A stretch of 39,590 nt of DNA, taken from assembly GCA_029776125.1 (NCBI GenBank), contig JARVJS010000006.1, forward strand, positions 1 through 39,590, written 5' to 3'. The DNA is from Nitrososphaeria archaeon (lineage in GTDB: Archaea > Thermoproteota > Nitrososphaeria > JACIWG01). The notes beneath the pieces are model-generated. The model did no database searches and had not been told where the DNA came from. It saw nothing but the letters and a program-made list of their open reading frames with translations. Position 1 is the stretch's first letter. Each line of letters begins with the position of its first letter. Made by a program: the position numbers and the translations under genes. Shown piece after piece: positions 1-37,502 of the stretch.

Positions 1-1188
1 ATTAAAGAAACTTTGGTCAGAGCAATTACAGACTGTGGTGTGGAGGTTTACGATCTTGGTTTAGTTCCTACGCCTGTTCAGTATTTTTCCCTGTTTACGC
101 TTCCTGTGGAAGGCGGGATGATGATAACCGCAAGCCACAATCCACCTGAATACAATGGTTTTAAACTGAGCATTGGTAAGGAAACAATTTTTGGTGAGGA
201 CATACAGAAAATAAGAAACATTATTGAAAACAAAACATTTGTAGCTTTGATGAAAAAGGAAAGGGCAATTAAATGCAATATGCGTAACTATTACATAGAT
301 TACATGGTAAATGCTTTTCCTTCACTTAAAGGGTTAAAAGTAGTGGTTGACTCGGGAAATGGCGTGGCAGGAGTGGTTGCTCCCGAGATAATGAAAAAAC
401 TTGGCGCAGAGGTAATAGAACTTTTCAGTAAACCTGATGGAACCTTTCCTAATCATCATCCTGACCCTGTTGTTCCTGAAAACATGAAAGTAATGATTGA
501 AACAGTGAGAAAAACAAAGGCACACGTAGGCATTGGTTACGATGGGGATGGTGACAGACTTGGCGTTGTTGATGAGAATGGAGAGATGATTTGGGGAGAC
601 AAGCTGATGATTATATTTGCAAAGGATGTTTTAAAAGAAAATCCTGGTGCAAAAATTATTGGTGAGGTTAAGTGTTCAGATGTAATGTATAGAGAAATAG
701 AAAGATTGGGCGGAAAACCAATAATGTGGAAAACGGGACATTCACTTATAAAGAGAAAAATGAAGGAAGAAGAAGCCTTACTTGCAGGAGAGATGAGCGG
801 GCACATGTTTTTTAAGGATAGATACTTTGGTTATGACGATGCTATTTATGCTTCCTTGAGATTACTTGAAATACTGAAAAATTCAGGAGAGCCCTACAGC
901 ATAGGCAAACTACTTAATGGTGTAAATTTCATGTGTACCACACCTGAAATAAGAATAGATTGCCCTGAAGAAGAAAAAGAAACAGTAATTGAACGTGCTA
1001 AAGAATGTTTTAAAAATTATGCCTGCTGTTTCATAGATGGTGTAAGAGTAAGTTTTGACAAAGGTTGGGCATTGATAAGACCGTCTAATACTCAACCTGT
1101 GCTGGTTGCAAGAATAGAAGCGGAGACAGAAAAACAGCTTAACGAAATAAAACAGATATTTCAGAAAGAACTTTCATTAAATTTTTAA
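1..1188 (+). CDS. Phosphomannomutase/phosphoglucomutase family protein, 5'-truncated by window edge
   Basis: TASHNPPEYNGFK phosphoserine loop, GYDGDGDRLGVVD metal loop, GEMSGH and RPSNTQP motifs; frame open to base 1, so the TTG at 13 is probably not the true start. Confidence 0.93.
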   Translation: MKETLVRAITDCGVEVYDLGLVPTPVQYFSLFTLPVEGGMMITASHNPPEYNGFKLSIGKETIFGEDIQKIRNIIENKTFVALMKKERAIKCNMRNYYIDYMVNAFPSLKGLKVVVDSGNGVAGVVAPEIMKKLGAEVIELFSKPDGTFPNHHPDPVVPENMKVMIETVRKTKAHVGIGYDGDGDRLGVVDENGEMIWGDKLMIIFAKDVLKENPGAKIIGEVKCSDVMYREIERLGGKPIMWKTGHSLIKRKMKEEEALLAGEMSGHMFFKDRYFGYDDAIYASLRLLEILKNSGEPYSIGKLLNGVNFMCTTPEIRIDCPEEEKETVIERAKECFKNYACCFIDGVRVSFDKGWALIRPSNTQPVLVARIEAETEKQLNEIKQIFQKELSLNF

Positions 1189-6796: not shown

Positions 6797-6803
6797 ATTG
6801 ATT

Positions 6804-6832
6804 TTGATACATTCGGGTACCCTATATGTAGA
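6804..6832 (+). promoter_or_regulatory. Promoter block copy 2 upstream of csf2
   Basis: TTGATACATTCGGGTACCCTATATGTAGA. Confidence 0.7.
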
Positions 6833-6885
6833 GATGCATTAATATATATAGAGAACAAAGTAAAAACAAAAAAGGAGGAAAAACT

Positions 6886-7941
6886 ATGAAGTCAGTAGTA
6901 TTTGAAGGAACAATTAAAACTGTATCACCATTGTTAGTTATGTTGCCTGAACCCAAAGGAGCACCAAGAAGTGCGGATAAGTCACCAAAGCATCCAAAAG
7001 CACCTGTTGTAGTAGGAGACATGGTAGTAGAAGTCCCTGTAATTCCGGGGAACACTATAAGGGGTGCTTTAAGAAGACAACTTGCTTTTAGTATTCTTTC
7101 AAAATTTAAAGACCTTGACTATTTAACCATTACCTTTCTTACTTGTGGTGGAGTAATAGACCCAAAAGAGGAAGACAAGGTTAGTCTTAAGCCAAATGAA
7201 GTATTTGAGTATGTCAAAGCAATTAAAGATAAAAACGTTGTTGCAAGTCTTTTCGGGGGATCTTTGCCAATAATAAAGATGATAAAAAGTAGCCTTATAA
7301 CAGAATTTGCTTGGGCAAAAGTAGGAGAAATTTATGATGGCTATCCTTATGTAGATGACATTATGCTGAAAAATATTACGTTTGCTAAGTTAGATGAAAC
7401 ATTAAGAAATTATGACATTTACAGTCTCCTTTCAGAAGAAGGCAAAGCAGAACTTGAAAAAAGATTTCAGAGCAAGAAAGAGAGAGTTGAATCAGGAGAA
7501 GAAAAAGGTAATGGTAAAAAACAAACAGGAGCAGAAACCGCAAACATTATTGGGTCTCTTGGTGATGCAGTAGCACCTAATGTTGAGTTTCAACACAGAA
7601 TAGAACTAACAGAGCCAACAGAAAGAAACTTAGGTGGTTTACTTTATGCTTTAAAAATGTTTGCCGAAAATGATGCTACTTTAGGAGGACATGTAAGGTT
7701 TGGTTTTGGAAAAGTTTATTGCGAATACAAAGTTTATGAAATAGAAGGAAAAGAAAAAAAAGAAATTGGAGATATTGCTGGTGGATGGGCACGCTTTGAG
7801 AATGAAGGTTTTGCTAGATTTTGTGAAATTAGTCCATCTTTAAAACCTTATTTGGCTACTTTTCAAGATTATTTTAGCAACTTAGAGAAAAAAGATATTA
7901 TTGTTGTTATTCCACAGGGGAAAAAGTCAAAAGGAGAATAG
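6886..7941 (+). CDS. csf2: Type IV CRISPR-associated RAMP, Csf2 (Cas7)-like
   Basis: RAMP motif VPVIPGNTIRGALRRQL, LGGHVRFGFGKV glycine loop; synteny with csf3, csf1, cas6, array and DinG. Confidence 0.75.
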   Translation: MKSVVFEGTIKTVSPLLVMLPEPKGAPRSADKSPKHPKAPVVVGDMVVEVPVIPGNTIRGALRRQLAFSILSKFKDLDYLTITFLTCGGVIDPKEEDKVSLKPNEVFEYVKAIKDKNVVASLFGGSLPIIKMIKSSLITEFAWAKVGEIYDGYPYVDDIMLKNITFAKLDETLRNYDIYSLLSEEGKAELEKRFQSKKERVESGEEKGNGKKQTGAETANIIGSLGDAVAPNVEFQHRIELTEPTERNLGGLLYALKMFAENDATLGGHVRFGFGKVYCEYKVYEIEGKEKKEIGDIAGGWARFENEGFARFCEISPSLKPYLATFQDYFSNLEKKDIIVVIPQGKKSKGE

Positions 7942-7942
7942 C

Positions 7943-8614
7943 ATGAGATTTGAGGTAAGCTTTGTAAACAAACAAAAAGCAGGGCTTGTTGTTTTAAATA
8001 CTAATACTCCTTTTGATGGAATACTATCTTATTTTGCTTATTTAAGAAATAAGGAAAAGTATTCTGAACAGGAAGCGGTGAGACTATCTCAAGAGGAACT
8101 TCCTTTAAAGAAGTATATTTTTGAAGGAGATTTCTTTTATTTTGCAGGTATGCCTGATATATTCACAACTACTCCTGTTAAAGATTACATGTTTGGTTTT
8201 ACTAACAAAATCTCTAATCCACAAACATACGAAAAAATGGGAAGCGATTTTGTAAAAAAACTGTTTTCAGTAAAAAAACTTGAACAGGGTAGTGGTGGGA
8301 CTGGTCCATACAAATGCTGGCTTGTTACAGTAAAAGCGACTTATTTTAACAAAATATCTTATGTTGTTGAAGTGGAAAATGAAAGAGTAGATGAATTTAT
8401 TTCTCTTGTAAAGAACATTAACGCAATTGGCAAATATACAAGGTTTGGATTTGGTAGGTTTGAAGAATGTGAAATAGTTGAAACAGACAAGCCAATAAGA
8501 AGATATATTCCTGTTAATGCAGGAATAAAAACAGAAAAACAGTTCATTATGTCAGCAACAAGACCACCATATTGGGGGAGGGAAACAGTATTATGCGGAA
8601 TGGCAGAGATATAA
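7943..8614 (+). CDS. csf3: Type IV CRISPR-associated Csf3 (Cas5)-like; likely start 7943
   Basis: IGKYTRFGFGRFEECEI and C-terminal RPPYWGRE..C pattern; RBS aaaggag before ATG. Confidence 0.72.
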   Translation: MRFEVSFVNKQKAGLVVLNTNTPFDGILSYFAYLRNKEKYSEQEAVRLSQEELPLKKYIFEGDFFYFAGMPDIFTTTPVKDYMFGFTNKISNPQTYEKMGSDFVKKLFSVKKLEQGSGGTGPYKCWLVTVKATYFNKISYVVEVENERVDEFISLVKNINAIGKYTRFGFGRFEECEIVETDKPIRRYIPVNAGIKTEKQFIMSATRPPYWGRETVLCGMAEI

Positions 8615-9339
8615 CTAAGCCTGCTCAGTTGTTTAAAGTAGCAGGATTTGACCTTAAAGTTGACGATAAAAAGAAGCTATATCAAACTGATGAGAGGATT
8701 CTTTGTTGTATTTGCAGGCAAAAAGACGCAGAGGTGTATAAAATTAACGATGTATTTGGTGGTGGATTTACAAGTTTTAACTTATTTAGCCACAGTAAAT
8801 TTATTTGCAAAGATTGTGCAGGTTTGGTTTCTGATTTCTACAGAAAAAGTCTTGGTAAAGTAATAATTTACTTTAATCCTGAGACTTCTGAGGTGTATTA
8901 TTTCAAAAGTAAAGCAGACAAGACAGAATCAGAACAGGGAGAAAGCATACAGTTAGTTTTAAGCGACGAAGAGAAAGAATTTTGGAAAAACTTTTTACTA
9001 AATCCATCTAAAGGATACTTTTTAATTTCAATTCCTGCTCGTCAGAATGCTCATTATGTAATTTTTGCGCCTCTTTGTTATTCAGATGGAAATATTAAGA
9101 CCTATCAGTTCAACTATGGTGAAACAGTAATGAATGTTGAAGTAGAGGAATTAAATCAAATTATAAATTCAGAAGCTCAAATTAAACAATTAAAAGAACT
9201 CTTAAAATCCATCAAAAAAGACAAGGAAAAAAAGATTTCCATAGTAAAGGAATTAAATGAATTATACCACCAATTAAACATTTTAAAAAGTAAAGACACA
9301 TACTTGCTTTATCAAAATTTTAGATTATTCTTCAGTTAA
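8572..9339 (+). CDS. csf1: Type IV CRISPR-associated Csf1-like, zinc-binding N-terminus (ATG at 8593 possible)
   Basis: CCICRQKDAE...FTSFNLFSHSKFICKDCAG (CxxC..CxxC); position in csf cluster. Confidence 0.6.
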   Translation: MGEGNSIMRNGRDITKPAQLFKVAGFDLKVDDKKKLYQTDERILCCICRQKDAEVYKINDVFGGGFTSFNLFSHSKFICKDCAGLVSDFYRKSLGKVIIYFNPETSEVYYFKSKADKTESEQGESIQLVLSDEEKEFWKNFLLNPSKGYFLISIPARQNAHYVIFAPLCYSDGNIKTYQFNYGETVMNVEVEELNQIINSEAQIKQLKELLKSIKKDKEKKISIVKELNELYHQLNILKSKDTYLLYQNFRLFFS

Positions 9340-9351
9340 AGGAGGATACTT

Positions 9352-10080
9352 ATGAAATTTACAATTTCGTTTTATTGTAAAGAACCAATTGATGGAATAA
9401 ACAGTATTATGGCAGTTCAGGGGTGGATATATCGTAATATGGAAAAGGTTAATCCAGAACTTGCTAATTGGCTACACAATGAAGGAATTTTTAAGAATAA
9501 CAAAGTAATGAAACCAATTAATTTTTCACCTGTTTACAAAACGCAAAGAAAAAATATATATGGAATTAAAGTATCTACTTTGGTTACTAAAATTCAGCAC
9601 GCAATTGTAGAAATGTTAAATGATCCTGAACCTCTTGTCCTAAAGGGCAAAAATGAAAGAACCATTTCCTTAAATGTTAGTGAAGTAAAAATGAAGAAAT
9701 TGAGAGATACCAAGGTTTATTTTACTCTATCTCCAATTATCTTTCGTGACAAAGACGGATTTGTAAAACTTGATTTTACTAAAGAAGAAGACATTGAGAA
9801 AGCACGACAAATTATTGAACACAATCTTACATGGAAATATGAATGTATCTATGATGAAGTATGTCCATACAGAGTTTATTACTTTCAACCTAAAAATATG
9901 AAAACTGCCTTTTATACAAATTATAAAATTCAGAGTAAAGACATTAAAATTCCTTTAACAGGTTACACAGGAAATTTCACGCTTATAGCGGATCAATCTC
10001 TTCTGGATATGGCGTACTACTTTGGCATTGGTTATATGACAGGCTCAGGTTTTGGATGTATAGAATCTGAAGTAAAATAA
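9352..10080 (+). CDS. Cas6/Csf5-like crRNA endonuclease
   Basis: RAMP fold with C-terminal GIGYMTGSGFGCIE glycine-rich loop; immediately upstream of array 1. Confidence 0.68.
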   Translation: MKFTISFYCKEPIDGINSIMAVQGWIYRNMEKVNPELANWLHNEGIFKNNKVMKPINFSPVYKTQRKNIYGIKVSTLVTKIQHAIVEMLNDPEPLVLKGKNERTISLNVSEVKMKKLRDTKVYFTLSPIIFRDKDGFVKLDFTKEEDIEKARQIIEHNLTWKYECIYDEVCPYRVYYFQPKNMKTAFYTNYKIQSKDIKIPLTGYTGNFTLIADQSLLDMAYYFGIGYMTGSGFGCIESEVK

Positions 10081-10085
10081 AACTT

Positions 10086-10291
10086 TTGTTCTTTGACAAG
10101 GCTAATTGCATCAAACCTGTTTTCGAGATTATTTGGCATAAAATGTTGATTCATAAGAGAAAACAGACATATTTAAGCAAATAAAAATTTTTTGACTACA
10201 GGTTTGATGCAAAAAACATGAAAAAGCAGAGGGTAAACATAACAAAAAGTCTGCTTTTTCTTAAGTTTGCTATTTCCTATAAAAGTTGGGG
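10086..10291 (+). promoter_or_regulatory. Array 1 leader with shared motif TTGTTCTTTGACAAGGCTAA
   Basis: motif at 10086-10105 recurs before arrays 2 and 3; 15-bp inverted repeat 10106-10120/10198-10212; 11-bp hairpin 10220-10230/10250-10260. Confidence 0.7.
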
Positions 10292-10992
10292 GTTTTAAAA
10301 GAACCAGTATGGAGTGAAAACCATAGCCTCTTTAGTTTGGTGGTGGATAAGTAAAAAAGTTTTAAAAGAACCAGTATGGAGTGAAAACCTTTTTTGTCTC
10401 CTTCTGCTTTATAAAGTGAGTCATAGTTTTAAAAGAACCAGTATGGAGTGAAAACCGAACTCGACGATGACAGACGAGATGAAATAGAGCTCTTGTTTTA
10501 AAAGAACCAGTATGGAGTGAAAACAGCATGAACAAAAAAACGAGAAAAAAACATGCGAGCAAGTTTTAAAAGAACCAGTATGGAGTGAAAACCGGTCAGA
10601 TGGGCTCTTAGGGAAAAACTCAAAGACAGTTTTAAAAGAACCAGTATGGAGTGAAAACATGTTTTTTTAAGAGTGCAATGCACTCTCTAATATAGTTTTA
10701 AAAGAACCAGTATGGAGTGAAAACGTGAAAGAATACAGTAAAGAATATCAATCTCCAGAGGTTTTAAAAGAACCAGTATGGAGTGAAAACATATATAGAG
10801 GAGGTGAAAATGTCAAAAGTAATCAGAGTTTTAAAAGAACCAGTATGGAGTGAAAAGAGAGAACGGTGGTTGGAAAGGATAAGGAGACTGAAAGGTTTTA
10901 AAAGAACCAGTATGGAGTGAAAAGTTGACTGTTTCTGATGTGGTCACATTCTGTCAGATGAGTTTTTAAAAAAACCAATATGGAATGAATTT
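10292..10992 (+). CRISPR. CRISPR array 1: ten repeats plus a degenerate terminal repeat; ten spacers of 36-39 nt
   Basis: GTTTTAAAAGAACCAGTATGGAGTGAAAAC at 10292, 10359, 10426, 10495, 10563, 10629, 10695, 10761, 10828, 10895; degenerate copy at 10962. Confidence 0.99.
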
Positions 10993-11036
10993 GCATTATA
11001 TATATTAGAAACAAAAAAAACAAAGGAGGAGATAAT

Positions 11037-13133
11037 ATGGAAATTTTAACTCAACTGTCAAAGAAAAAACTTATCACAAAAAGAAAAGAACAAGTAGAAC
11101 TATCTCAAAGCATATTGGATACCTTTGAGCAAAAGCGTATTGGTATTTTTGAAAGCCCTACAGGAACAGGAAAAACTCTTGCTTTTATGTCTGCGGTGGT
11201 GGAGTTTTGTCTTAAGAATTCTGCAAACAAGGTAATTATATCTACAAGTTCAAAGCAACTACAATCTCAAATGGTTCAGGAAATAGAAAAAATTAGCAAG
11301 GTTAAGGATTTAAGTAATTTTAGATATGTTATTGTTAAAGGTAAATCCAACTACTTACTCAGGAAAAAGATTGAAGAAAACCTTAAGAGATGTCTTAATC
11401 AAAAAAACTGTGAAATCTATAAAAAACTACTTAAAGCAGCTGACCAGGTTGATGGTGATATAGAGTTACTTTCTGATGAAATTATAGAACAGGTTAATTC
11501 AATAGCACCTGAAATGCTTGAAAGTTTAAGAACACCTGTAAGACTACCAATTTCTGAGACTGATTATGCATTGAAGGTTAGAGAACAGGCAGAAAAAGCA
11601 AATCTTATTATTGTGAATCACAGTTTATTTCTTTGTTATAACCTTCTTTTACAAAAAGAGTCAAATCCATTTTTTAAGACTTTTGCTTATGAATCTGAGA
11701 CACTTCCAGAAGACAGATCTATATCTGTAATTATAGATGAAGCACATACACTTGAAAATGTTGCTCAAAGACTTTTTGCTAAAGAAACTGCTATAAGAGA
11801 AATTCTCTTTGTGGCAGAACATTTGCTAAAAACAGTTTCATCTGTTAAATCTAATACAAAGTTTGTAATGGAGTATGGGAAAATAAAAGAATATATAGAA
11901 AACATAGCAAACAAAGCAAGAAAAGAAAAAGTTGAATACATACACATAACCAAAGACAAGATAAATTTTGATCCTGTAGTTAAATTAATAAGCACATATA
12001 TAGAATCATTTAAAATATTTGGCAAAAGGATTATGTCTCTTATTCCAAAAAATGATGATTTTATAAATCTAAAAGAAAAAGCATCAAAGATTAACGAAAT
12101 AATAAATGTTATCTACAATATTCTGAGAGAAAATAAACCTATTAAGAGTCACTGTTACCTCATTACTTTTTCTCCAGAAAAAAAATATCCTTCCTTTGCA
12201 GTAATAACACCCAGAATTGGTGGAGCTATGCACAATGTATTAGTAAACTTTGATTCCATAGTTCTTTTAAGTGGAACTTTAAGAGATCCAGACAAAGACA
12301 ACATTGATAATGATGCAGATAGGTTTAAAATTATCAGAACAAGACTTGCTATTGACTCATTAATTCCAAAGCGAAAAGAAGGTTTTTCTATAAATGCAAG
12401 AGTGTTTCAGGGATTTGATTTAAAAAAACTTGCTACTGTATATGTTTATCCAGAAGGACCATATCCACCTAAACTCAATGAAGAGAAAAACAAAGATAAG
12501 GATTACAGAGAATTATTAAAGAAAGAATATTTACTACCTCAAAAGGAAAGAATACTTTCTATCCTTAAAAACAGCAAAAAAGCACTAATTCTTACAACAG
12601 CTCACTATGAAACAGAGTTCTACAGAGAAATGCTTATGAATATTTCAGATAAAACAATAATAACTTACCCTGACAATGGTAGTTCTCTAATTCAAAAAGT
12701 AGAGGAATTTAAAAATTCTGATTCTGCAGTTTTTATTACAGCAAGTGCATGGGAAGGATTAGATGCTAAAATAGACACATTGATTATTTCCAAACTACCT
12801 TTTGCTTCTCCTAATGATCCATACTATATTGCATACCACGAAAATGAGAAAAACTATTTCCAAAGTTACTTATCAGAAAAAGACGCTCAAATAAGAGCAA
12901 ATTTAAGAGAACACATGAAAAGAGAATTTGATACATTTATTAAGTTTAGGCAAGGATTAGGTAGAGCAATAAGAGGAGGAGATGATTACTGCAATATTCA
13001 CATACTTGACCCAAGAGCATATGAACCAAAATATTATCAGAAGTTTTTACTTAATACTTATAAAGTTGCAGAGGTTAAGCAAAGAATAGAGGAAAGTAGT
13101 AAATCTGTAAGCAGTTCTGTTGTCGATATTTAA
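11037..13133 (+). CDS. csf4: DinG/XPD-like SF2 helicase, probable type IV CasDinG (Csf4)
   Basis: FESPTGTGKTLAF, VIIDEAHTLE, TASAWEGLDAKID, FRQGLGRAIRGGDD motifs; adjacent to csf genes and array. Confidence 0.82.
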   Translation: MEILTQLSKKKLITKRKEQVELSQSILDTFEQKRIGIFESPTGTGKTLAFMSAVVEFCLKNSANKVIISTSSKQLQSQMVQEIEKISKVKDLSNFRYVIVKGKSNYLLRKKIEENLKRCLNQKNCEIYKKLLKAADQVDGDIELLSDEIIEQVNSIAPEMLESLRTPVRLPISETDYALKVREQAEKANLIIVNHSLFLCYNLLLQKESNPFFKTFAYESETLPEDRSISVIIDEAHTLENVAQRLFAKETAIREILFVAEHLLKTVSSVKSNTKFVMEYGKIKEYIENIANKARKEKVEYIHITKDKINFDPVVKLISTYIESFKIFGKRIMSLIPKNDDFINLKEKASKINEIINVIYNILRENKPIKSHCYLITFSPEKKYPSFAVITPRIGGAMHNVLVNFDSIVLLSGTLRDPDKDNIDNDADRFKIIRTRLAIDSLIPKRKEGFSINARVFQGFDLKKLATVYVYPEGPYPPKLNEEKNKDKDYRELLKKEYLLPQKERILSILKNSKKALILTTAHYETEFYREMLMNISDKTIITYPDNGSSLIQKVEEFKNSDSAVFITASAWEGLDAKIDTLIISKLPFASPNDPYYIAYHENEKNYFQSYLSEKDAQIRANLREHMKREFDTFIKFRQGLGRAIRGGDDYCNIHILDPRAYEPKYYQKFLLNTYKVAEVKQRIEESSKSVSSSVVDI

Positions 13134-13163: not shown

Positions 13164-13214
13164 AGTTAAATATTGAATTTATAAGAAATAACAAAACTTA
13201 ATACGAGATTAAGT

Positions 13215-13262
13215 TTGTTCTTTGACAAGGTTAAATTTGTTAATATTTGTATGTATAAATGT
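13215..13262 (+). promoter_or_regulatory. Short leader of array 2 with shared motif TTGTTCTTTGACAAGGTTAA
   Basis: exact core at 13215-13234; preceded by AAACTTAAT/ATTAAGTTT hairpin. Confidence 0.65.
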
Positions 13263-13690
13263 GTTTTAAAAGAACCTATAAGGAGTGAAAATCGCTCAAG
13301 TTCATACTGAATTTTTATTTCTGTTTCTGTTTTAAAAGAACCAGTATGGAGTGAAAAGGTAATAAATTGTTCGTTTGTCAACTTTAAGCGGTTTGTATTT
13401 TAAAAAAACCAGTATGGAATGAAAATTAATTCTCTGATATTTTTTGTTGCAAAAAAGGACTTGTTTTAAGAAAACCAGTGTGGAATGAAAAACAATTCCA
13501 ATTTAAGACATTCATCCACTTGTAGCATAGTTTTAAAAGAACCAGTATGGAGTGAAAACCAGAAATCGAGCAGTGGCACGACGTATGTGTAGCGGGTTTT
13601 AAAAGAACCTATGAGGAGTGAAAATAATCTCGTTCCGACGGCTATTAGTGTTTTATTTATATTTTAGTAGAACCTATAAGGATTGAAATT
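13263..13690 (+). CRISPR. CRISPR array 2: seven repeats, most degenerate, of the array 1 family
   Basis: repeats at 13263, 13329, ~13397, 13463, 13530, 13596, 13661; variants include GTTTTAAAAGAACCTATAAGGAGTGAAAAT. Confidence 0.93.
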
Positions 13691-16266: not shown

Positions 16267-18543
16267 ATGTCATTGTATGAGGACTTTAGTGAAAAAATTG
16301 CTATTGGAGCCTTATTTCAAGATATAGGCATTATAATTGCCAAAACAAAAGGAACTTGTTCTGATTACATAAAAGAAAGTAAAAATTGGCTTAATCAATA
16401 TTATCCAAAAGACGTAGCATCTCTACAAGAGTATGAGGACTTACTTTCCTTATTGAATGTTTCTGCTTTATCAGGGCAATCAAGTAATATAGACTACAGT
16501 CTAATAAAAAATTCTTTTCTAAAAATTGACTACAAAGAAAATTCCAGAGATTTATATTTTCCTTTAAGACCTTCAAAAGTAATCAATTCAACTACAAATA
16601 ATAAAACTTCTCAGAAAAATTACGAAGAATTATTTAAAAACTTTGAAAGTGATTTTTTAAAAATTAACAGATATAATGTTAATGCTTTATTATTTTTAAT
16701 TAAAAAACACTTCTCTTTTGTTCCTGTTAATGGTGATATTTCCTTTTATGACCAAAGTTGCTTTAATGCTCTATTAGCGTGTTGTTTATTTCACTATCTC
16801 AATAATAATTCAAAACAATTAAGTTTACCAATCAAAGATAGATTGAAACAAAGTTTAGACGAAAAAGCTTTCCTTCTCATAGGTGGGGATATATCAGGTA
16901 TTCAGAATTTTATTTATGCAGTTGCAACCTCTACAGGTGCTTTAAAATCCTTCAAGGGAAGATCCTTCTATCTTGAACTTCTCACTGAACATGTAGTCAA
17001 CGAAATACTTAACCAATTAGGACTGTTTCGTTTTAATATTTATTTTACAGGTGCAGGGCATTTTTACATAATTGCCTACAATACTGATAAAGCAAAGAAC
17101 ATTGTTAACAACATCAAAGAAAGAATCAATAATTTTCTCCTAAAAGAGTTTAATGGATTACTTCAGTTCCACATAGATTTCATTGAATTTCCAATAACTG
17201 CTTTCATGCAGAATTTAGACTTACAATTTATTGATTACTTTAATGACTTAAAAGGTAAACTTGAAATTTCTAAAAAGAAAAAATGGAATGATTTCTTAGA
17301 TAAAGTATTCATGGTTGAAACTCCTCATCCTGACTGCTATACTGAAGGGTGTTCGGTTTGTCAAAGAGAGGACAAGCCATTAACCTCAATAAGTAAACCT
17401 GAAAAAGAAGTTAAATACTGCTCTTCATGTTACAGTCAATACAAACTTGGAGAGCAACTAACTAAACTCTCTTTCCTTGAAAAAAGCATGCCCTGTATAT
17501 ATAAATACGATTTAGATAGTGAAACAAGAAATTCTGATTGCATTATTATAGATAATTCCTGTTATGTTTTTAATCCTGATATTGCAGTTAATTCCTCTAC
17601 AAATAAGCCAAAAAATAAGTATTTAATTAACTGTACTAACGCTTACTATTACAATTCAGAGGAATCAATATATTTCCCTGCCGGCATATACAACAATTCT
17701 GATATTGTAGAACTGTCCGATGTAAAAGGGTATTTTGGTAAAGATTTAGTTTCAGTTTTAAAAATGGATGTAGACAATTTAGGATGGATATTTTCTTTAG
17801 GGATACCTAAAGAGTATAGAACATTTACAAGAATGTCTAACATTTCTGAACTGCTTACTCACTTTTTCAAGTATTCAAGCAACTACATAGCCAAAGGAAG
17901 CGTTCCTACTCAGACAAGTCTTTTAAGGGATATTAAGGAAGGTTTTGAAAGAAGAATATCTATCGTTTACGCAGGAGGAGATGACTTACTTGTCGTAGGA
18001 CACTGGCTTGATATTTTAGAGTTTAGCATAGATATTGACAAATACTTTAGAATGCTTGCAGGTAATCCTAAAGTAACATTATCTGCAGGAATCTCCATAG
18101 GGCATCCAAAGTGTCCGTTTTACCTATTAACTCATACTGCAAACGATTTACTTGAGATAGCCAAAAAATCTAATCCCAATAAAAATTCTGTTACTGTGTT
18201 TGACGAAATCTTTACCTTTAAATGGGATGATTTTGAAATTGTAGAAAAATATATAAAACTACTAATTCCTTACTTTAAAAAAACAGAAAAGGAGATTATT
18301 CCTGTAGCACTGCCAAAGACCTTCTTTTACAGGTTTCTTGCAATTGCTAAAAACTTTGTTAATCACAACAGACTTGAAATATCCAAATTTATATACTTGC
18401 TTTCAAGGATTGGCGATAAAAACATAAGAAATACTCTTAAAACTGAACTTGAACCTCTCTTTACTTTAGACAAAAAAGAGTGGAAGTGCGTTTACTTTGC
18501 ATTAGTTTTATTGTTAATGAGTAGTTTAAGCAAAGAATCATAA
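16267..18543 (+). CDS. cas10: Type III-A CRISPR Cas10/Csm1
   Basis: AGGDDLLVVG cyclase motif, zinc motif CYTEGCSVC..KYCSSC, N-terminal GALFQDIG in place of HD motif. Confidence 0.92.
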   Translation: MSLYEDFSEKIAIGALFQDIGIIIAKTKGTCSDYIKESKNWLNQYYPKDVASLQEYEDLLSLLNVSALSGQSSNIDYSLIKNSFLKIDYKENSRDLYFPLRPSKVINSTTNNKTSQKNYEELFKNFESDFLKINRYNVNALLFLIKKHFSFVPVNGDISFYDQSCFNALLACCLFHYLNNNSKQLSLPIKDRLKQSLDEKAFLLIGGDISGIQNFIYAVATSTGALKSFKGRSFYLELLTEHVVNEILNQLGLFRFNIYFTGAGHFYIIAYNTDKAKNIVNNIKERINNFLLKEFNGLLQFHIDFIEFPITAFMQNLDLQFIDYFNDLKGKLEISKKKKWNDFLDKVFMVETPHPDCYTEGCSVCQREDKPLTSISKPEKEVKYCSSCYSQYKLGEQLTKLSFLEKSMPCIYKYDLDSETRNSDCIIIDNSCYVFNPDIAVNSSTNKPKNKYLINCTNAYYYNSEESIYFPAGIYNNSDIVELSDVKGYFGKDLVSVLKMDVDNLGWIFSLGIPKEYRTFTRMSNISELLTHFFKYSSNYIAKGSVPTQTSLLRDIKEGFERRISIVYAGGDDLLVVGHWLDILEFSIDIDKYFRMLAGNPKVTLSAGISIGHPKCPFYLLTHTANDLLEIAKKSNPNKNSVTVFDEIFTFKWDDFEIVEKYIKLLIPYFKKTEKEIIPVALPKTFFYRFLAIAKNFVNHNRLEISKFIYLLSRIGDKNIRNTLKTELEPLFTLDKKEWKCVYFALVLLLMSSLSKES

Positions 18544-18554
18544 GGAGGTAATAA

Positions 18555-18989
18555 ATGTCTAACTTTTATCAACATCACAAAAGAGAAGAAAAACCAATGG
18601 ATGCTTTCTTTGACCTATATTTGAAGGAATTAACAAAAAGTTCAAACCTAAAACTGCTTTCTACTGATTTAATTGTAAAGTTTGCTGATCAGGCAGGCAG
18701 AGAGTTTAGCAGAATACCTTTGTCTCAGATTAGGAAGTTTTTTAACACAGTAAAGAAAATGTCCTTAGCAGAAAAGTTTAATATTAACGATGTAATGTTA
18801 TTAAAACCTATTGTTGCCTACACTTACAGCAGAAATAAAAATAATAATAATTCAAAAGCATTTGATAGGTTTAAAAACTTAATGGATATATGTCTTGACC
18901 GAATTAAAGACGAAGCAGACTTTAAAAGATTTTTAACTCTGTTTGAAAGCATACTTGCCTATCATAAATTCTATGGAGGTAGAGAGTAA
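18555..18989 (+). CDS. csm2: Csm2-like small subunit
   Basis: size and position between cas10 and csm3; helical, FFNTVKKM region. Confidence 0.75.
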   Translation: MSNFYQHHKREEKPMDAFFDLYLKELTKSSNLKLLSTDLIVKFADQAGREFSRIPLSQIRKFFNTVKKMSLAEKFNINDVMLLKPIVAYTYSRNKNNNNSKAFDRFKNLMDICLDRIKDEADFKRFLTLFESILAYHKFYGGRE

Positions 18990-19768
18990 TGGATAAGCAA
19001 AGATTTTTACAAGGCAAAATTGAAGTTACAGGAATAATTAAGTGCCTTACAGGACTACACATTGGAGCATCGAAAGACACAGTAGAAATAGGAGGAATTG
19101 ACCTTATAGTAGTAAGAGACCCAATAACTAAAGAACCTGTTATTCCAGGAAGTTCTGTCAAAGGAAAAATGCGTAGTCTCCTTGAGAAATCTCTTAAAAA
19201 ACCTGCAAACAGAGATTCAGGCTCAGGTGTAAAAATTCATGTTTGTGATGACGCAAAAGAAGCTTACAAGTGTGAAGTTTGTCGTCTGTTTGGAACAACA
19301 GGAACAGGGAAAGACGCAAGCGGAAACAGAAATAAAAACTTTCCTTCAAGGCTTACTGTGAGAGATTCTTTCGTAACAGAAGAAAGCATGCAGGTATTAA
19401 GAAAACTTGATACAGGACTGCTTTACACAGAGTGGAAGTTTGAGAATGTTATTGATAGAAATACCTCTGCAGCCAATCCAAGACAGATTGAAAGAGTTCC
19501 TAAAGGAACAGAGTTTGATTTTTCTATGGTTTACGATGTTGAGGACTTAGAAACACTACAAAGTGACATGAACAATCTGCAACTTGCAGTAAACTTACTT
19601 TTGCGTGACTACCTTGGAGGACATGGAAGTAGAGGCTATGGAAAGATTGACCTTGTATTTAAAAGCATCGTGTTTTACTCTATACCTGAACTTGCAAAAC
19701 CAAATCCTGTAGGTATAAGGCTTGATAACCTATTAGACATAGAGAAAGTAAAGAACGCAATCAAATGA
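18989..19768 (+). CDS. csm3: Csm3 (Cas7-like RAMP)
   Basis: CLTGLHIGASKDTVEIGGIDLIVVRDPITKEPVIPGSSVKGKMRSLLE, GGHGSRGYGKI. Confidence 0.94.
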   Translation: MDKQRFLQGKIEVTGIIKCLTGLHIGASKDTVEIGGIDLIVVRDPITKEPVIPGSSVKGKMRSLLEKSLKKPANRDSGSGVKIHVCDDAKEAYKCEVCRLFGTTGTGKDASGNRNKNFPSRLTVRDSFVTEESMQVLRKLDTGLLYTEWKFENVIDRNTSAANPRQIERVPKGTEFDFSMVYDVEDLETLQSDMNNLQLAVNLLLRDYLGGHGSRGYGKIDLVFKSIVFYSIPELAKPNPVGIRLDNLLDIEKVKNAIK

Positions 19769-20739
19769 TAGATAGTTTATTTGTATTCAAAATAAAGTTT
19801 AAAAATTTTGTTAAGTTTGGGCATCTACTTTCTGCCAGACCTGTTTCTCTGGTTGAATCTGACGCACTGTTTTCGGCGTTATTAAATACAGTTAGTATCT
19901 ATTATGGAGAAAAAGAAACTAATACTTTAGTAGAGGAATTTATAAGCAATCCTCCCTTTTTAATTTCATCTCTGTTTCCCTACTGTAAAGATACTTACTA
20001 CTTACCAAAACCTTTATGGGATGACTTTATAAGTAATGATACTAAAAAACAACTTGGTAAACTCATCAAGAAAAGAACCCTTATAAATGTAGAGGATTTT
20101 TACAAATGGCTAACCAAAAATGAAAACTACTTCTTGCAAAGACTTACTACTGAACAATTCAAAACCGAAAAGACTTCCTTTCTAAAGACTGTTTTACTTC
20201 CCAAAACAGTGTTAGATAGGGAAAGTAAGTCAACTAATCTATATCATGTCGTATATGGAAAATTTGAACCTAATACAGGTGTCTATGGTTTTGTTTACTT
20301 TAAAAAACCTGAATACATAGAAAAATTTCACAAATACCTAATTTTATTGGGCAAAACAGGACTTGGTGGAGAAAGAACCTTTGGTTATGGACAGTTTGAA
20401 GTAGTAGAATATGCTCCTGTAAGAGGATTACTTAAAGATATATTTTTAACTAAAACAGATTTTTATGTTTCTCTATCATTAATTTATCCTGAACAGGAAA
20501 ACTTTATTTTAATAAAAAATTCACTTTTAGCATACGACTTAACTAAAAAAGGTGGTTTTATTTGTTCAGGAAAAAACCAAATCTCCATTAAAAAGAAAAC
20601 AGTAACCTTTTTGAAAGAGGGGACTTCAACTTCAGAACCTTTCAGAGGCTCTATTGTAGATGTAACACCTGAGAACGCTCACTACTACATTAACCACAAA
20701 GTTTATAAATATGGATATGCCCTTTGGGTGCCTTTATAA
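19765..20739 (+). CDS. csm4: Csm4 (Cas5-like RAMP)
   Basis: GLGGERTFGYGQFE; C-terminal FRGSIVDVTPENAHYYINHKVYKYGYAL. Confidence 0.88.
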   Translation: MIDSLFVFKIKFKNFVKFGHLLSARPVSLVESDALFSALLNTVSIYYGEKETNTLVEEFISNPPFLISSLFPYCKDTYYLPKPLWDDFISNDTKKQLGKLIKKRTLINVEDFYKWLTKNENYFLQRLTTEQFKTEKTSFLKTVLLPKTVLDRESKSTNLYHVVYGKFEPNTGVYGFVYFKKPEYIEKFHKYLILLGKTGLGGERTFGYGQFEVVEYAPVRGLLKDIFLTKTDFYVSLSLIYPEQENFILIKNSLLAYDLTKKGGFICSGKNQISIKKKTVTFLKEGTSTSEPFRGSIVDVTPENAHYYINHKVYKYGYALWVPL

Positions 20740-20745
20740 ATAAAT

Positions 20746-20919
20746 TTGTTCTTTGACAAGGTTAATTTCATAAAACATTGATATTGCTTGTTTTAGACTA
20801 AACAAGAAATCAAGCAGTATCAATAACCTGTATTATATTCGTAAGTAGAAAAACACAAAAATTTTTGTATAACCCTACTTATAACCTATTGAAATATAAA
20901 AGAAAAAACATAGGGTACA
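20746..20919 (+). promoter_or_regulatory. Array 3 leader with shared motif TTGTTCTTTGACAAGGTTAA
   Basis: core at 20746-20765; inverted repeat 20777-20790/20811-20824 with one G.T; inner CTTGTTT/AAACAAG. Confidence 0.65.
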
Positions 20920-21104
20920 GTAGGAAAAGAGACCTGTTTTAAAGGGGATAAGGACATGTGGTCGTTTAGAAATGCCTCCACAATCTCCTTCGTAGGAAAA
21001 GAGACCTGTTTTAAAGGGGATAAGGATTGGTTTAGAACAGATTCTAACCCTTCGCATCTACTTTTGTAGTAGGAAAAGAGACCTGATTAAAAGGGGATAA
21101 ACAA
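20920..21104 (+). CRISPR. CRISPR array 3: two full 36-nt repeats plus degenerate third; two spacers
   Basis: GTAGGAAAAGAGACCTGTTTTAAAGGGGATAAGGAC at 20920 and 20992 (last base T), degenerate at 21069; spacers 36 and 41 nt. Confidence 0.9.
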
Positions 21105-21128
21105 AAAAAAACAAAAAGGAGGAATAAG

Positions 21129-22307
21129 ATGAACATATTAGTTAACCTTGTTTCAGACCAAACTATACCTAATGTTCTTGTTACTTATAGCATTAGAGAA
21201 AGGTTTTCGATAGATAGGCTTTTTTTCATTTCTACCAACTACATGAATAAGAAAAACAAAGTGAAACACATTGTTAATACTCTTTCAGAATTGGGGATTA
21301 ATGTAGATTATGAAATTTTAACATTAACTAACGAGTATTCTTTGTATGATATTTATAAGGATTTAAGTTATTTATCTGAAAGGTATAAAAATGCTCAATT
21401 CTTTGTTAATCTTACATGCGGAACAAAGATAATGTTTTTTGTTACTCATGAGTTTTTTAAAAGTTTAGGTAGTAAGTTTTTTTACTTACCTGAGTGGAAG
21501 AAAAATTCAATTATAAATTTATCAGTATTTGATGCAGATGAGGAGATTCCAATTAACTTAAAACTGTCGGCAAAGAACTATTTGTCTGGCTATGGAATTA
21601 CTCTTGAAAATTACAATAGTTTGCCTAATTATATAAACAGAGCATTAGAGAGAAAAAACATAACCCTGAAACTATACAACAATTATCCTCAAACAAAACA
21701 AATGCTATCAGAGCTTTTTGAACAGATAAAGACCAATGGATATAAAATCAAGCAAAAGAAAATTTTGCTAACTTTTGAACTTTCTAACTTAAACGACATA
21801 CAAAAAAGTATTCTTAAATCTTATGGATTTACAATTAAAGGTAGCAGTGTTTCTGCATCTCTCGACAAATATGATATTGAGTATCTTACAGGTGGATGGT
21901 TTGAGGAATATGTTTTTATAACTCTATATGAGATGAAAAACGAAGGAATAATTGATGATGTTGTATTAAAAATGCAAACTTTAGTAAGTAATTTAGCAGT
22001 TCATAACGAACTTGATGTTGCCTTTACAAAAGATAATAAACTATTTATAGTTGAGTGTAAATCTCTTGATCCTGATGATGAAATAAATAAAAATGCCCTT
22101 TATAAAATTCAATCGTTTAAAGATAGAACCAATATAGGAGCCAATGTTAAAGGTTTTTATGTAACTACTTCAAGTGCAATATTTGACAATCACTCTAACG
22201 ATGTGAAACTTCACTTAAAAAATAGAGCAAAACTGTATAACACTGAAATCATCCACCTTGATGGTAGTAAAAACCTTAAAGAAATCATTTTGCCATATAT
22301 TAATTGA
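21129..22307 (+). CDS. Card1/Can2-like CARF + PD-(D/E)xK nuclease (DUF1887 family)
   Basis: N-terminal Rossmann/CARF pattern (FFVNLTCGTKIM); nuclease GGWFEEYVF...NELDVAFTKDNKLFIVECKS. Confidence 0.85.
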   Translation: MNILVNLVSDQTIPNVLVTYSIRERFSIDRLFFISTNYMNKKNKVKHIVNTLSELGINVDYEILTLTNEYSLYDIYKDLSYLSERYKNAQFFVNLTCGTKIMFFVTHEFFKSLGSKFFYLPEWKKNSIINLSVFDADEEIPINLKLSAKNYLSGYGITLENYNSLPNYINRALERKNITLKLYNNYPQTKQMLSELFEQIKTNGYKIKQKKILLTFELSNLNDIQKSILKSYGFTIKGSSVSASLDKYDIEYLTGGWFEEYVFITLYEMKNEGIIDDVVLKMQTLVSNLAVHNELDVAFTKDNKLFIVECKSLDPDDEINKNALYKIQSFKDRTNIGANVKGFYVTTSSAIFDNHSNDVKLHLKNRAKLYNTEIIHLDGSKNLKEIILPYIN

Positions 22308-22316
22308 GGGAGGGCT

Positions 22317-23282
22317 ATGCAGATAGAGATACCTTATCAAACATATACTGTTATTGCAGAGGCTAAAAACACTCTTGAATTACCTCTGTTTTATGGTGCA
22401 ACAATTCGTGGCGGTTTAGGTTATGTGTTAAAGGAATTCACCTGCACAAATAAAAAATTGAATACCTGTTCCTCTTGTTATTTAATTCAGAAGTGTAGAT
22501 ACAGTTTTCTTTTTGAGGCGGTCTCCAAAGTAAATGGAGCAGGGCAGTTTTTCTTTAAACAAGGTGAAAAAATTCCTCCACCTTTTGTTATTGAATCAAC
22601 ATTAGCGAATACAAAAGTAGTTCAAAAGGGAAGTTCTTTTTCCTTTTCTTTTACTTTGTTTGGAGAGGCAATTAAGTATTTAACATATTTTGCTTATGGA
22701 TTTGAGCAATTGGGTAAGTTAGGACTTGGCGGGAAAGGGGGGAAATATTGTTTAAAGGCAATAACAGTTGACAATGGTGATACTTCTGTTCCTGTTTATC
22801 AAGATGGAGTTTTGCAAGCAGTAGAAAATAAGATTTTTAAATTATCTATTGATACAGATAATTGTGAAAAATTAAATAATGTAAAATTATGTTTTGATAC
22901 ACCTGTAAGAATTAAAATAAATGGCAAATTAATGACTCCTGATGATTTTAATTTTCTTAAATTTTTTGCTTCACTTCTCAGAAGGCTTTCCTGTTTATTG
23001 TATTTTTATTGCGGAAAACAAGTTATAGATATAGAGGAAGTAAAACATTTAATTCAACTTGCAGAAACAGTTAAAGTCAACAAGAAAAACCTTCACTGGT
23101 TTGACCTATCAAGATATTCAACAAGGCAAAAAAGCAAAGTAAAGCTTGGCGGTTTTGTTGGTCATGTCACATTAAATCAGGTTCCTGTTCCTGCTTATGA
23201 AATATTAAAAGCAGGAAAAATAATTCACATATCAAAAAATGCAAGTTTTGGATTGGGAAAGATTTCCTTAATTTGCCTTTGA
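22317..23282 (+). CDS. cas6: Cas6 pre-crRNA endoribonuclease (RAMP)
   Basis: FYGATIRGGLGYVLKEFTC..CSSCYLIQKCRYSFLFE, GLGGKGGKYCL, C-terminal ASFGLGKI. Confidence 0.87.
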   Translation: MQIEIPYQTYTVIAEAKNTLELPLFYGATIRGGLGYVLKEFTCTNKKLNTCSSCYLIQKCRYSFLFEAVSKVNGAGQFFFKQGEKIPPPFVIESTLANTKVVQKGSSFSFSFTLFGEAIKYLTYFAYGFEQLGKLGLGGKGGKYCLKAITVDNGDTSVPVYQDGVLQAVENKIFKLSIDTDNCEKLNNVKLCFDTPVRIKINGKLMTPDDFNFLKFFASLLRRLSCLLYFYCGKQVIDIEEVKHLIQLAETVKVNKKNLHWFDLSRYSTRQKSKVKLGGFVGHVTLNQVPVPAYEILKAGKIIHISKNASFGLGKISLICL

Positions 23283-35995: not shown

Positions 35996-36799
35996 TTAAA
36001 TATTGGTATTATTTTGAAAGTTTTTGTCTTTTATTAAATCTAAAAGATACTGTACATATTCATTTGTATATACACCAAAATTATTAGGCAAAAATTTTAA
36101 AGAGTGCTTAAATCCTTGTTTTAAGGTATACGGAAAATCAATATGTATTCCTGAGAGTTTATTTGAATGTTTCATATTACGTTTTTTTTCACGATAAAAC
36201 TTGGCTCTTTTTGATTCAATAAATATATGAATATTGTATTTTTCTTTAAATGTTGGATCAAATATTATACAATCAACTCCTAATCTGTCTAAAGTAGAGC
36301 TACGGAATATCAAATATCCTTGTGGAACAAAAACAGTTGCTAAAAGTATAACTGCATGATATTCGGTTAAAAAACCGAATTGTGTACGATAAAGTCTGGC
36401 TTGCAGATGTTTGTGAAAATCTTTTCCTAAAGATTTTATAATAGGGGAAAATTCCAGATAAAGTTTATTTTTATATTTTTCCAAATAAAGAGAAGCAAAT
36501 TCCGGGAAATCTATCCATTTCTTTTCATTCCAGAAAAGAATTTCTAAAAGTTCAGTCGGATTAAGTTCACCTTTTAAATCTACCTCAAAGCCTTTATAAT
36601 TTTTAAAATTTGGATTAACAGATAATGTTGAAAGAAATTTTTCAAGTTCACATAAATTATATTCAGAAGGATTAACCTGAAAAAGTTCTATATTATAGTT
36701 TTTACTATTTATCTTTAATTTTTTCAAGCAAAATATCCCATGTATAGTAATTAAATGATGAAGTTTTATTGTTAACAATATGTTTAAGAAATTCCTCAA
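35996..36799 (-). CDS. Putative restriction endonuclease subunit (PD-(D/E)xK); true start uncertain
   Basis: RLYRTQFGFLTEYH and GVDCII..HIFIESKRAK; paralogous to upstream ORF. Confidence 0.6.
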   Translation of the reverse strand: MRNFLNILLTIKLHHLITIHGIFCLKKLKINSKNYNIELFQVNPSEYNLCELEKFLSTLSVNPNFKNYKGFEVDLKGELNPTELLEILFWNEKKWIDFPEFASLYLEKYKNKLYLEFSPIIKSLGKDFHKHLQARLYRTQFGFLTEYHAVILLATVFVPQGYLIFRSSTLDRLGVDCIIFDPTFKEKYNIHIFIESKRAKFYREKKRNMKHSNKLSGIHIDFPYTLKQGFKHSLKFLPNNFGVYTNEYVQYLLDLIKDKNFQNNTNI

Positions 36800-37502
36800 C
36801 GGTTTTTGGATATTCTGGATCGAATATTACAAAATCGTTTTTAAGCCAACGTTGAAATTTATAAGCACACAAATAAAACAATTCTGCTTGACTTTTGCGG
36901 ATTTTACTGCGTGCTCTATGAATAATTTTTAGCCATTCATCTGGTTTAGTTAAAGTATATGGGATTTCAATCACTATTTCATATTCGTGTTGACGATTTG
37001 CAAATCTTCCGCCAGTGTTGGCTTCACTTCTATAAGTTTCTTTTTTTATCTGTAAAGCAATTTTAGTGTTTTGTATATTTACTTCAGCATCAATGCCTTT
37101 TAGGTCTAATTCTGAATTAGTATTTAATGCAGATAAACATGATAACTTCCATGTATAACAAAAATGAAATTGCGTTAACACTGAAATTGTAGTACGATAA
37201 AGTCTTGCTTTGAATCCTTTACGGATAAATTCCCATGAGCATCCCCAAAAGTATTTGCGAACAAACTCATCTATAAAAGAAAGTTTGCTTTCCCACCAAT
37301 TATCAAAAAAATTTTCAAAACTTGGGAAATTTTTTATCACCTCTGTCCAGTAAGCATCATAAATTGCCGGTATTGGATTGAGAGATCTAGGTAAATCTTG
37401 CTCTACTGTTTTAACAGAAAGAAGTTCTTCCCTATACTGTTCAAGTGGAATGCTCTCTAAAAAATTTTCAAAAGCCGAAAGAATATTTTTAATGCTTTCC
37501 AT
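36705..37502 (-). CDS. Putative restriction endonuclease subunit (PD-(D/E)xK-like)
   Basis: RLYRTTISVLTQFH and GIDAEV..IALQIKKE; next to the DNA methyltransferase. Confidence 0.6.
   Translation of the reverse strand: MESIKNILSAFENFLESIPLEQYREELLSVKTVEQDLPRSLNPIPAIYDAYWTEVIKNFPSFENFFDNWWESKLSFIDEFVRKYFWGCSWEFIRKGFKARLYRTTISVLTQFHFCYTWKLSCLSALNTNSELDLKGIDAEVNIQNTKIALQIKKETYRSEANTGGRFANRQHEYEIVIEIPYTLTKPDEWLKIIHRARSKIRKSQAELFYLCAYKFQRWLKNDFVIFDPEYPKTVEEFLKHIVNNKTSSFNYYTWDILLEKIKDK

What the first reader, a model, noticed from the sequence alone, without database searches (positions are those of the whole stretch)
6804..13133. Type IV-A-like CRISPR-Cas locus with rearranged gene order and array between cas6 and dinG
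Sequence: RAMP ORF (VPVIPGNTIRGALRR), Csf3-like ORF (RFGFGRFEE..RPPYWGRE), CxxC..CxxC ORF, Cas6-like ORF, a 10-spacer array, then a DinG/XPD helicase, all on the + strand. Established knowledge: type IV-A combines Csf1/2/3, a Cas6/Csf5 and DinG (Csf4), usually on plasmids and usually without adaptation genes. Inference: this is a divergent type IV-A in an AT-rich, possibly thermophilic host. The order csf2-csf3-csf1-cas6-array-dinG differs from the usual arrangement and could be a new subtype or variant.
Basis: partly seen in the sequence, partly recalled or inferred. Interest (0 to 1): 0.85.

Follow-up and report, generated by a model that had tools for sequence, protein, structure and literature searches.

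The report
Divergent type IV-A CRISPR beside type III
A bacterial DNA contig carries an unusually divergent version of a known CRISPR system thought to silence invading DNA with a helicase instead of cutting it, and right next to it a second CRISPR system of a different type whose arrays share the same leader signal.

Summary
Window 6886-13133 encodes, on one strand, Csf2 (Cas7), Csf3 (Cas5), Csf1 (Cas8), Cas6, a 10-spacer array and a DinG-type helicase. All csf genes match type IV profiles better than Csm, Cmr or type I. In a 21-sequence tree the helicase groups with CasDinG (99/96), away from housekeeping DinG/YoaA, and lacks the iron-sulphur cysteines. Most likely it is a divergent type IV-A system: Cas6 makes crRNAs, Csf1-3 form an R-loop complex, CasDinG unwinds the target without cutting it. 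Scores are far below those of IV-A3, IV-B, IV-D and IV-E-like proteins tested alongside; Csf2's place within type IV is unresolved. Gene order differs from five IV-A plasmid loci, but order varies across type IV and an internal array occurs in a IV-D-like locus, so order alone makes no subtype. All three arrays share an exact 17-bp leader motif. No cas1 was found in the bin and no protospacer was found. The contig is probably bacterial, misbinned in an archaeal MAG.

The parts
6803..6831 (+). promoter-like element TTTGATACATTCGGGTACCCTATATGTAG upstream of the csf operon
   Evidence: The same element precedes ORFs at 1226, 16232, 23278, 25592 and 33271 of the window (2-8 mismatches) and on contigs C85, C146 and C2 of the bin. 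The promoter role is inferred.
6886..7941 (+). csf2 (Cas7-like backbone), 351 aa
   Evidence: PADLOC Csf2_0_IV E 3.4e-38, best Csm3 4.6e-9; TIGR03115 69.8 bits, below its cut-off of 130; groups with type IV against Csm3 100/100
7943..8614 (+). csf3 (Cas5-like), 223 aa
   Evidence: PADLOC Csf3_0_IV E 1.1e-16; TIGR03116 E 2.3e-11; C-terminal RPPYW...C shared with type IV Csf3
8593..9339 (+). csf1 (small Cas8-like, four-cysteine zinc finger), 248 aa
   Evidence: PADLOC Csf1_0_IV E 2.1e-15; TIGR03114 E 1.3e-6; C38(39)xxC41...C72xxC75 align with the invariant Cys of other Csf1. hhalign with a 7-sequence set failed.
9352..10080 (+). cas6 (generic Cas6/Cas6b clade, not Csf5, Cas6e or Cas6f), 242 aa
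   Evidence: PADLOC Cas6b E 1.1e-25, typeIV_Cas6 4.5e-13; TIGR01877 72.1 bits, above its cut-off of 58.65
10085..10101 (+). leader motif TTTGTTCTTTGACAAGG of array 1
   Evidence: Exact 17-mer; within 1 mismatch its core occurs only at the three arrays in the whole bin
10292..10992 (+). CRISPR array 1: repeat GTTTTAAAAGAACCAGTATGGAGTGAAAAC, 10 spacers, degenerate last repeat
11037..13133 (+). casDinG (csf4), 698 aa, Walker A and DEAH box present, FeS cysteine set absent, no HNH
   Evidence: PADLOC Csf4_0_IVA E 5.8e-64; no HNH in Pfam; tree with CasDinG 99/96 and alignment; AU tests
13214..13230 (+). leader motif of array 2
13263..13690 (+). CRISPR array 2: same repeat, 7 repeats (one perfect, others degenerate), 6 spacers
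16267..18543 (+). type III-A-like cas10/csm1: GGDD present at residue 570, no HD motif (FQDIG instead)
   Evidence: PADLOC E 2.6e-119; Pfam Cas10 palm; motifs
18555..18989 (+). csm2 (Cas11)
   Evidence: PADLOC Csm2 E 5.6e-24
18989..19768 (+). csm3 (Cas7), GGID motif present
   Evidence: PADLOC Csm3 E 1.8e-69; motif
19765..20739 (+). csm4 (Cas5)
   Evidence: PADLOC Csm4 E 6.8e-51
20745..20761 (+). leader motif of array 3
20920..21104 (+). CRISPR array 3: different repeat GTAGGAAAAGAGACCTGTTTTAAAGGGGATAAGGAC, 3 repeats, 2 spacers
21129..22307 (+). Card1/Can2-like CARF-PD(D/E)XK effector
   Evidence: Pfam CARF_Card1 E 9.5e-27 and Card1_endonuc E 5.2e-20; ELDV...ECK motif
22317..23282 (+). second cas6, of the type III module
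   Evidence: PADLOC Cas6 E 5.2e-83

Best explanation
This is a divergent type IV-A CRISPR-Cas effector module. Cas6 cuts precursor RNA from arrays 1 and 2 into crRNAs. Csf2 filaments on the crRNA with Csf3 at the 5' end, and the zinc-finger Csf1 (with Csf3) checks the flank of a DNA target. The R-loop then recruits CasDinG, which unwinds DNA 5'-3' and blocks transcription or replication of the invader without cutting it. Shown here: gene content, family matches, helicase clade and motifs, arrays, absence of an HNH nuclease, absence of cas1 from the bin. Inferred from studied IV-A systems: complex assembly, DNA targeting and the silencing mechanism. New spacers, if any, must come from cas1-cas2 supplied in trans (inferred). 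The neighbouring type III-A-like module is a separate effector that shares the leader signal.
For: Type IV profiles are the best match for Csf1, Csf2, Csf3 and (in PADLOC) Csf4. Csf2 separates from Csm3 with the type IV sequences at 100/100. DinG joins CasDinG at 99/96; joining it to three chosen housekeeping sequences or pairs is rejected (p 1.7e-7, 3e-5, 0.023); FeS cysteines are missing as reported for CasDinG (PMC10450177). Csf1 has the four-cysteine zinc finger that reads the PAM in IV-A (PMC11519345). A clean 10-spacer array and its Cas6 lie in the operon. No cas1 in the bin and no HNH in DinG.
Against: Scores are well below those of the other type IV proteins tested (Csf2 130 bits against 195-307), and none of the csf genes reaches its NCBIfam cut-off. 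Csf2's place within type IV is unresolved (p 0.38-0.43 for alternatives). Csf1 was not recovered by hhalign or by structure. The DinG branch is long (2.23) and NCBIfam ranks YoaA above Csf4. No protospacer was found, so DNA targeting is unproven.
Confidence: 0.8

Rival explanations
1. A separate type IV lineage (own subtype): the csf core branched off near the base of type IV and acquired a CasDinG and a generic Cas6 on its own, so it works like IV-A without being a IV-A descendant. (Its mechanism overlaps with the best explanation; the two differ in ancestry.)
For: Csf2 is about as close to IV-B/D as to IV-A/E in trees; IV-B/D grouping and a position basal to all type IV are not rejected (p 0.38, 0.43). 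In the smaller tree it joined IV-B/D at 93/85. Low profile scores for Csf1, Csf2 and Csf3. The Cas6 and its unstructured repeat differ from the Cas6e or Cas6f of the plasmid systems read here.
Against: DinG groups with CasDinG of both IV-A3 and Cas6f-associated systems, and the best-scoring tree, slightly favoured, puts Csf2 with IV-A/E (88/68). IV-A systems with a generic Cas6, such as Mahella, are known (PMC8175902).
Confidence: 0.3
2. The csf genes and the csm genes form one hybrid system: csm5 is missing from the type III module, and crRNAs of the shared locus load both complexes, with Csf2 or Csf3 standing in for Csm5.
For: csm5 is absent; the only Csm5-profile hit in the bin is csm3 itself. 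All arrays share a leader motif. The modules lie 3 kb apart on one strand.
Against: Each module has its own Cas6 and its own repeat, a promoter-like element sits before each operon, and UvrD-like and RNase H genes separate them. Type III modules without one Cas7 paralogue may work alone (general knowledge).
Confidence: 0.1
3. A decaying CRISPR island: the type IV module is a relic that no longer functions.
For: Array 2 repeats are degenerate (21-30 of 30 matches). Scores are low. No adaptation genes in the bin.
Against: All five ORFs are intact with conserved motifs, array 1 is nearly perfect, and the operon has a promoter-like element.
Confidence: 0.1
4. The helicase is an ordinary DinG/YoaA and the rest a type III variant; there is no type IV system.
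For: NCBIfam's best helicase hit is YoaA (172.6 bits, against 121.7 for Csf4).
Against: The PADLOC best hit is Csf4_0_IVA; the tree and AU tests put it with CasDinG and the FeS cysteines are absent; Csf2 and Csf3 match type IV better than Csm, Cmr or type I profiles, and Csf1 matches only the type IV large-subunit models plus a weak unrelated hit.
Confidence: 0.04

Closest known systems
Type IV-A3 (Klebsiella/Raoultella/Aeromonas plasmids, loci L058, L059, L069-L071)
   Same: csf1, csf2, csf3, a cas6, CasDinG without FeS cysteines, no nuclease
   Different: Gene order there is csf1-cas6-dinG-csf3-csf2, here csf2-csf3-csf1-cas6-array-dinG; Cas6e annotated in three of them, generic Cas6 here; Csf2 identity is low (23-24% at best to any type IV sequence in the trees)
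Type IV-A with generic Cas6 (Mahella australiensis)
   Same: IV-A effector set with a Cas6 rather than Csf5 or Cas6e (PMC8175902)
   Different: No sequence was available here for comparison; gene order not checked
Cas6f-associated type IV with CasDinG (IV-E-like; Pseudomonas L054, Halomonas L055)
   Same: CasDinG clade, csf2 first, cas6 directly before dinG
   Different: Cas6f, and cas1f beside it in L054
Type IV-D (Paenibacillus L042, L043; IV-D-like L101, L104)
   Same: type IV csf core; an array can sit inside the operon (L104)
   Different: RecD-like helicase instead of DinG
Type III-A (Csm) with a Card1-like effector
   Same: neighbouring module has Cas10 with GGDD, Csm2, Csm3, Csm4, CARF-nuclease, Cas6
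   Different: no csm5, no HD nuclease motif, no cas1-cas2

Membership tests
Type IV-A | type IV Cas7 (csf2) | tested here: met
   Csf2_0_IV 130 bits against Csm3 35 bits; tree 100/100 apart from Csm3
Type IV-A | csf3 (Cas5) with type IV C-terminal signature | tested here: met
   E 1.1e-16; RPPYW...C; hhalign P 8e-4
Type IV-A | csf1 with zinc-finger N-terminus | tested here: met
   E 2.1e-15, four Cys; but hhalign with 7 sequences negative
Type IV-A | CasDinG, distinct from housekeeping DinG, FeS cysteines lost | tested here: met
Type IV-A | cas6/csf5 and a CRISPR array in the locus | tested here: met
Type IV-A | no adaptation genes | tested here: met
   none among the window ORFs matched to families; no Cas1 in the bin, which is incomplete and mixed
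Type IV-A | carried on a plasmid or other mobile element | tested here: inconclusive
   SbcCD, topoisomerase, DnaD-like, RNase H and UvrD-like genes, but no relaxase or transfer genes recognised
Type IV-A | crRNA-guided DNA silencing without cleavage | not testable with these tools
   needs experiment
NCBIfam equivalogs TIGR03114-03117 (Csf1-Csf4) | score above curated cut-off | tested here: not met
   Csf1 28.2/140, Csf2 69.8/130, Csf3 43.8/140, Csf4 121.7/400 bits
Type IV-A2 | HNH domain in DinG | tested here: not met
   no HNH in Pfam
Type IV-D | RecD-like helicase with csf core | tested here: not met
   the helicase is DinG-type
Type IV-B | cysH-like gene, no array | tested here: not met
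   arrays present; no CysH match among the genes scanned
Type III-A (neighbouring module) | Cas10, Csm2, Csm3, Csm4 | tested here: met
Type III-A (neighbouring module) | Csm5 | tested here: not met
   no separate Csm5 in the bin; 20739-21129 holds only leader and array

The most novel reading that the evidence does not exclude
A deep-branching type IV lineage, outside the named subtypes, that pairs a CasDinG with a generic Cas6 and works in tandem with a type III-A-like signalling module, both kept supplied with spacers through a shared leader signal by adaptation proteins acting in trans.
Probability: 0.25. Interest if true: 0.7.

Novelty: new variant of a known kind. Interest (0 to 1): 0.5.

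Why it matters
The type IV-A complexes studied in the papers read here come from proteobacterial plasmids and strains. A divergent IV-A with a different Cas6 and an unstructured repeat would show how far the CasDinG mechanism extends. Its neighbour, a type III-A-like module with an identical leader motif but a different repeat, offers a direct test of whether two effector types share one source of spacers, which is an open question for systems without cas1-cas2.

Tried and rejected
Gene order as proof of a new subtype: rejected, because order varies among type IV loci and an internal array occurs in the IV-D-like L104. Helicase as housekeeping DinG: rejected by the tree and AU tests. Csf3 structure prediction: pLDDT 33, useless. 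Csf1 model (pLDDT 54) against the PDB: no meaningful match. PDB sequence searches for Csf1, Csf3 and Cas6: no type IV hit. Spacers against phages, plasmids and the bin: no convincing protospacer. Relatives with the same architecture: none in viral contigs (IV-B wherever classified), GTDB genomes (four distant hits: two IV-D, one IV-B, one unassigned), 54 genomes of the Caldisericia hit's phylum or 398 of the Paenibacillus hit's phylum. The contig scans used narrow peptide patterns, so this is weak negative evidence. Csf2 tblastn against plasmids and phages: no match. Papers on IV-A and III-A in one locus: none found in the open library.
Full report
WHAT IS THERE. Five intact ORFs and an array lie on the + strand between 6886 and 13133. 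PADLOC assigns them to Csf2_0_IV (E 3.4e-38), Csf3_0_IV (1.1e-16), Csf1_0_IV (2.1e-15), Cas6b/Cas6 (1.1e-25) and Csf4_0_IVA (5.8e-64). NCBIfam agrees on Csf1, Csf2, Csf3 and Cas6, but the csf scores are under the curated cut-offs. For the helicase NCBIfam's best hit is YoaA (172.6 bits), with Csf4 at 121.7. Array 1 (10292-10992) has ten repeats, eight identical and two with one change, a degenerate last repeat and 10 spacers.

Array 2 (13263-13690) carries the same repeat in mostly degenerate form. Further downstream lies a type III-A-like module, 16267-23282: Cas10, Csm2, Csm3, Csm4, array 3 with another repeat, a Card1-like CARF nuclease and a second Cas6. Cas10 keeps GGDD (signalling) but has no HD motif. 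No separate csm5 was found in the bin. An exact 17-mer, TTTGTTCTTTGACAAGG, lies in front of all three arrays. Its extended core, allowing one mismatch, occurs nowhere else in the 1.24 Mb bin.

IS IT TYPE IV-A? First, the csf ORFs match type IV better than Csm, Cmr or I-B profiles. Csf2 separates from eight Csm3-like sequences together with all type IV Csf2 at 100/100. Second, in a 21-sequence tree the helicase groups with seven CasDinG proteins at 99/96, against 13 housekeeping-type DinG/YoaA proteins. It lacks the iron-sulphur cysteines but keeps Walker A and DEAH. Holding it with three chosen housekeeping sequences or pairs is rejected (p 1.7e-7, 3.2e-5, 0.023). Loss of these cysteines is a published mark of CasDinG (PMC10450177). 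Its branch is long (2.23), so a wider tree is needed. Csf1 has two CxxC pairs that align with other Csf1; in studied IV-A complexes the zinc-finger domain of this subunit and Csf3 touch the PAM (PMC11519345). Csf1 remains the weakest assignment: a small hhalign test and the structure search did not recover it.

HOW DIVERGENT? On Csf2_0_IV the window protein scores 130 bits. The Csf2 proteins of IV-A3, Cas6f-associated, IV-D, IV-B and other loci tested alongside score 195-307. The pattern is similar for Csf3 (59 against 174-240) and Csf1 (55 against 182). Some of those sequences may resemble the training sets of the profiles, so the gap is a guide only. Within type IV, Csf2 joins IV-A/E at 88/68 in the larger tree and IV-B/D at 93/85 in the smaller one; the alternatives tested on the larger tree are not rejected. 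Its place is open.

GENE ORDER. Five plasmid IV-A loci have csf1-cas6-dinG-csf3-csf2 (several genes there are annotated only as hypothetical and were named by position, partly by profile). Here csf2-csf3 come first, then csf1-cas6-[array]-dinG, so the run csf1-cas6-dinG is kept with an array between cas6 and dinG. A Cas6f-type locus has csf2-cas6-dinG. A IV-D-like locus (L104) has an array inside the operon between recD and csf3. Order is therefore not a subtype mark by itself.

MECHANISM. By analogy with studied IV-A systems (PMC11519345, PMC10450177, PMC8175902), Cas6 releases crRNAs, Csf1-3 assemble on them and open DNA next to a PAM, and CasDinG unwinds it to block expression or replication. 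No HNH domain is present, so cleavage as in IV-A2 is not expected. The repeat is predicted to be unstructured, as is common for generic Cas6 enzymes (general knowledge). No protospacer was found in phages, plasmids or the bin, so DNA targeting and PAM are unproven here. The type III-A-like module would act apart, by cyclic oligoadenylate signalling to the CARF nuclease (inference).

HOST. The window is a whole contig of a bin whose 16S gene reads as archaeal (my reading of the sequence). The window's own genes look bacterial: a DnaD-like protein, strong Shine-Dalgarno sites, bacterial-type SbcCD, TaqI restriction-modification. Contig C85, which shares the promoter-like element, has type II secretion-like and polysaccharide export-like genes (my reading). 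A misbinned bacterial contig is the likely reading. The best plasmid hit for its topoisomerase is from Persephonella marina at 42% identity, a weak hint at a hot-spring or vent bacterium. Thermophily is not shown.

NOVELTY. No locus with this architecture turned up in the searches made, but the contig scans were narrow. IV-A systems with a generic Cas6 are already reported (PMC8175902). Plasmids with more than one CRISPR-Cas system are known but infrequent, with combinations involving type I the commonest (PMC9071438). I rate this a new variant of a known kind. The shared leader motif across two repeat families and two effector types is the most testable oddity.

Noticed in passing
window 16267-23282: Type III-A-like module (Cas10 with GGDD but no HD, Csm2-4, Card1-like nuclease, Cas6, own short array) without csm5, 3 kb downstream of the type IV module.
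   Followed up: partly
window 10085, 13214, 20745: Identical 17-bp leader motif TTTGTTCTTTGACAAGG before three arrays of two different repeats; not found elsewhere in the bin.
   Followed up: partly
window 10106-10120 and 10198-10212: Perfect 15-bp inverted repeat inside the leader of array 1 (TTGCATCAAACCTGT / ACAGGTTTGATGCAA). Leader 3 also holds an inverted repeat, and one spans the dinG stop before array 2.
   Followed up: no
window 1226, 6803, 16232, 23278, 25592, 33271; bin contigs C2, C85, C146: Recurrent promoter-like element TTTGATACAT...TGTACCCTATATATAG upstream of many ORFs; it suggests that these contigs belong to one genome.
   Followed up: partly
G000, locus L046: The bin's 16S gene reads as archaeal while the window and contig C85 look bacterial: probable contamination of the MAG.
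   Followed up: partly
window 35996-38820: TaqI-like restriction-modification genes: one methylase and two TaqI-type endonuclease ORFs, the second more divergent.
   Followed up: no
L054 4890-10313: Pseudomonas plasmid type IV locus (csf2, Cas6f, CasDinG) with a cas1f gene directly beside it, unusual for type IV.
   Followed up: no
L023 1489-3816; L025 1008-3600: Type IV-like csf2 genes in other genomes of the host bin's phylum (L023 with csf3 and a CxxC protein; L025 with a CxxC protein and a small protein upstream).
   Followed up: no
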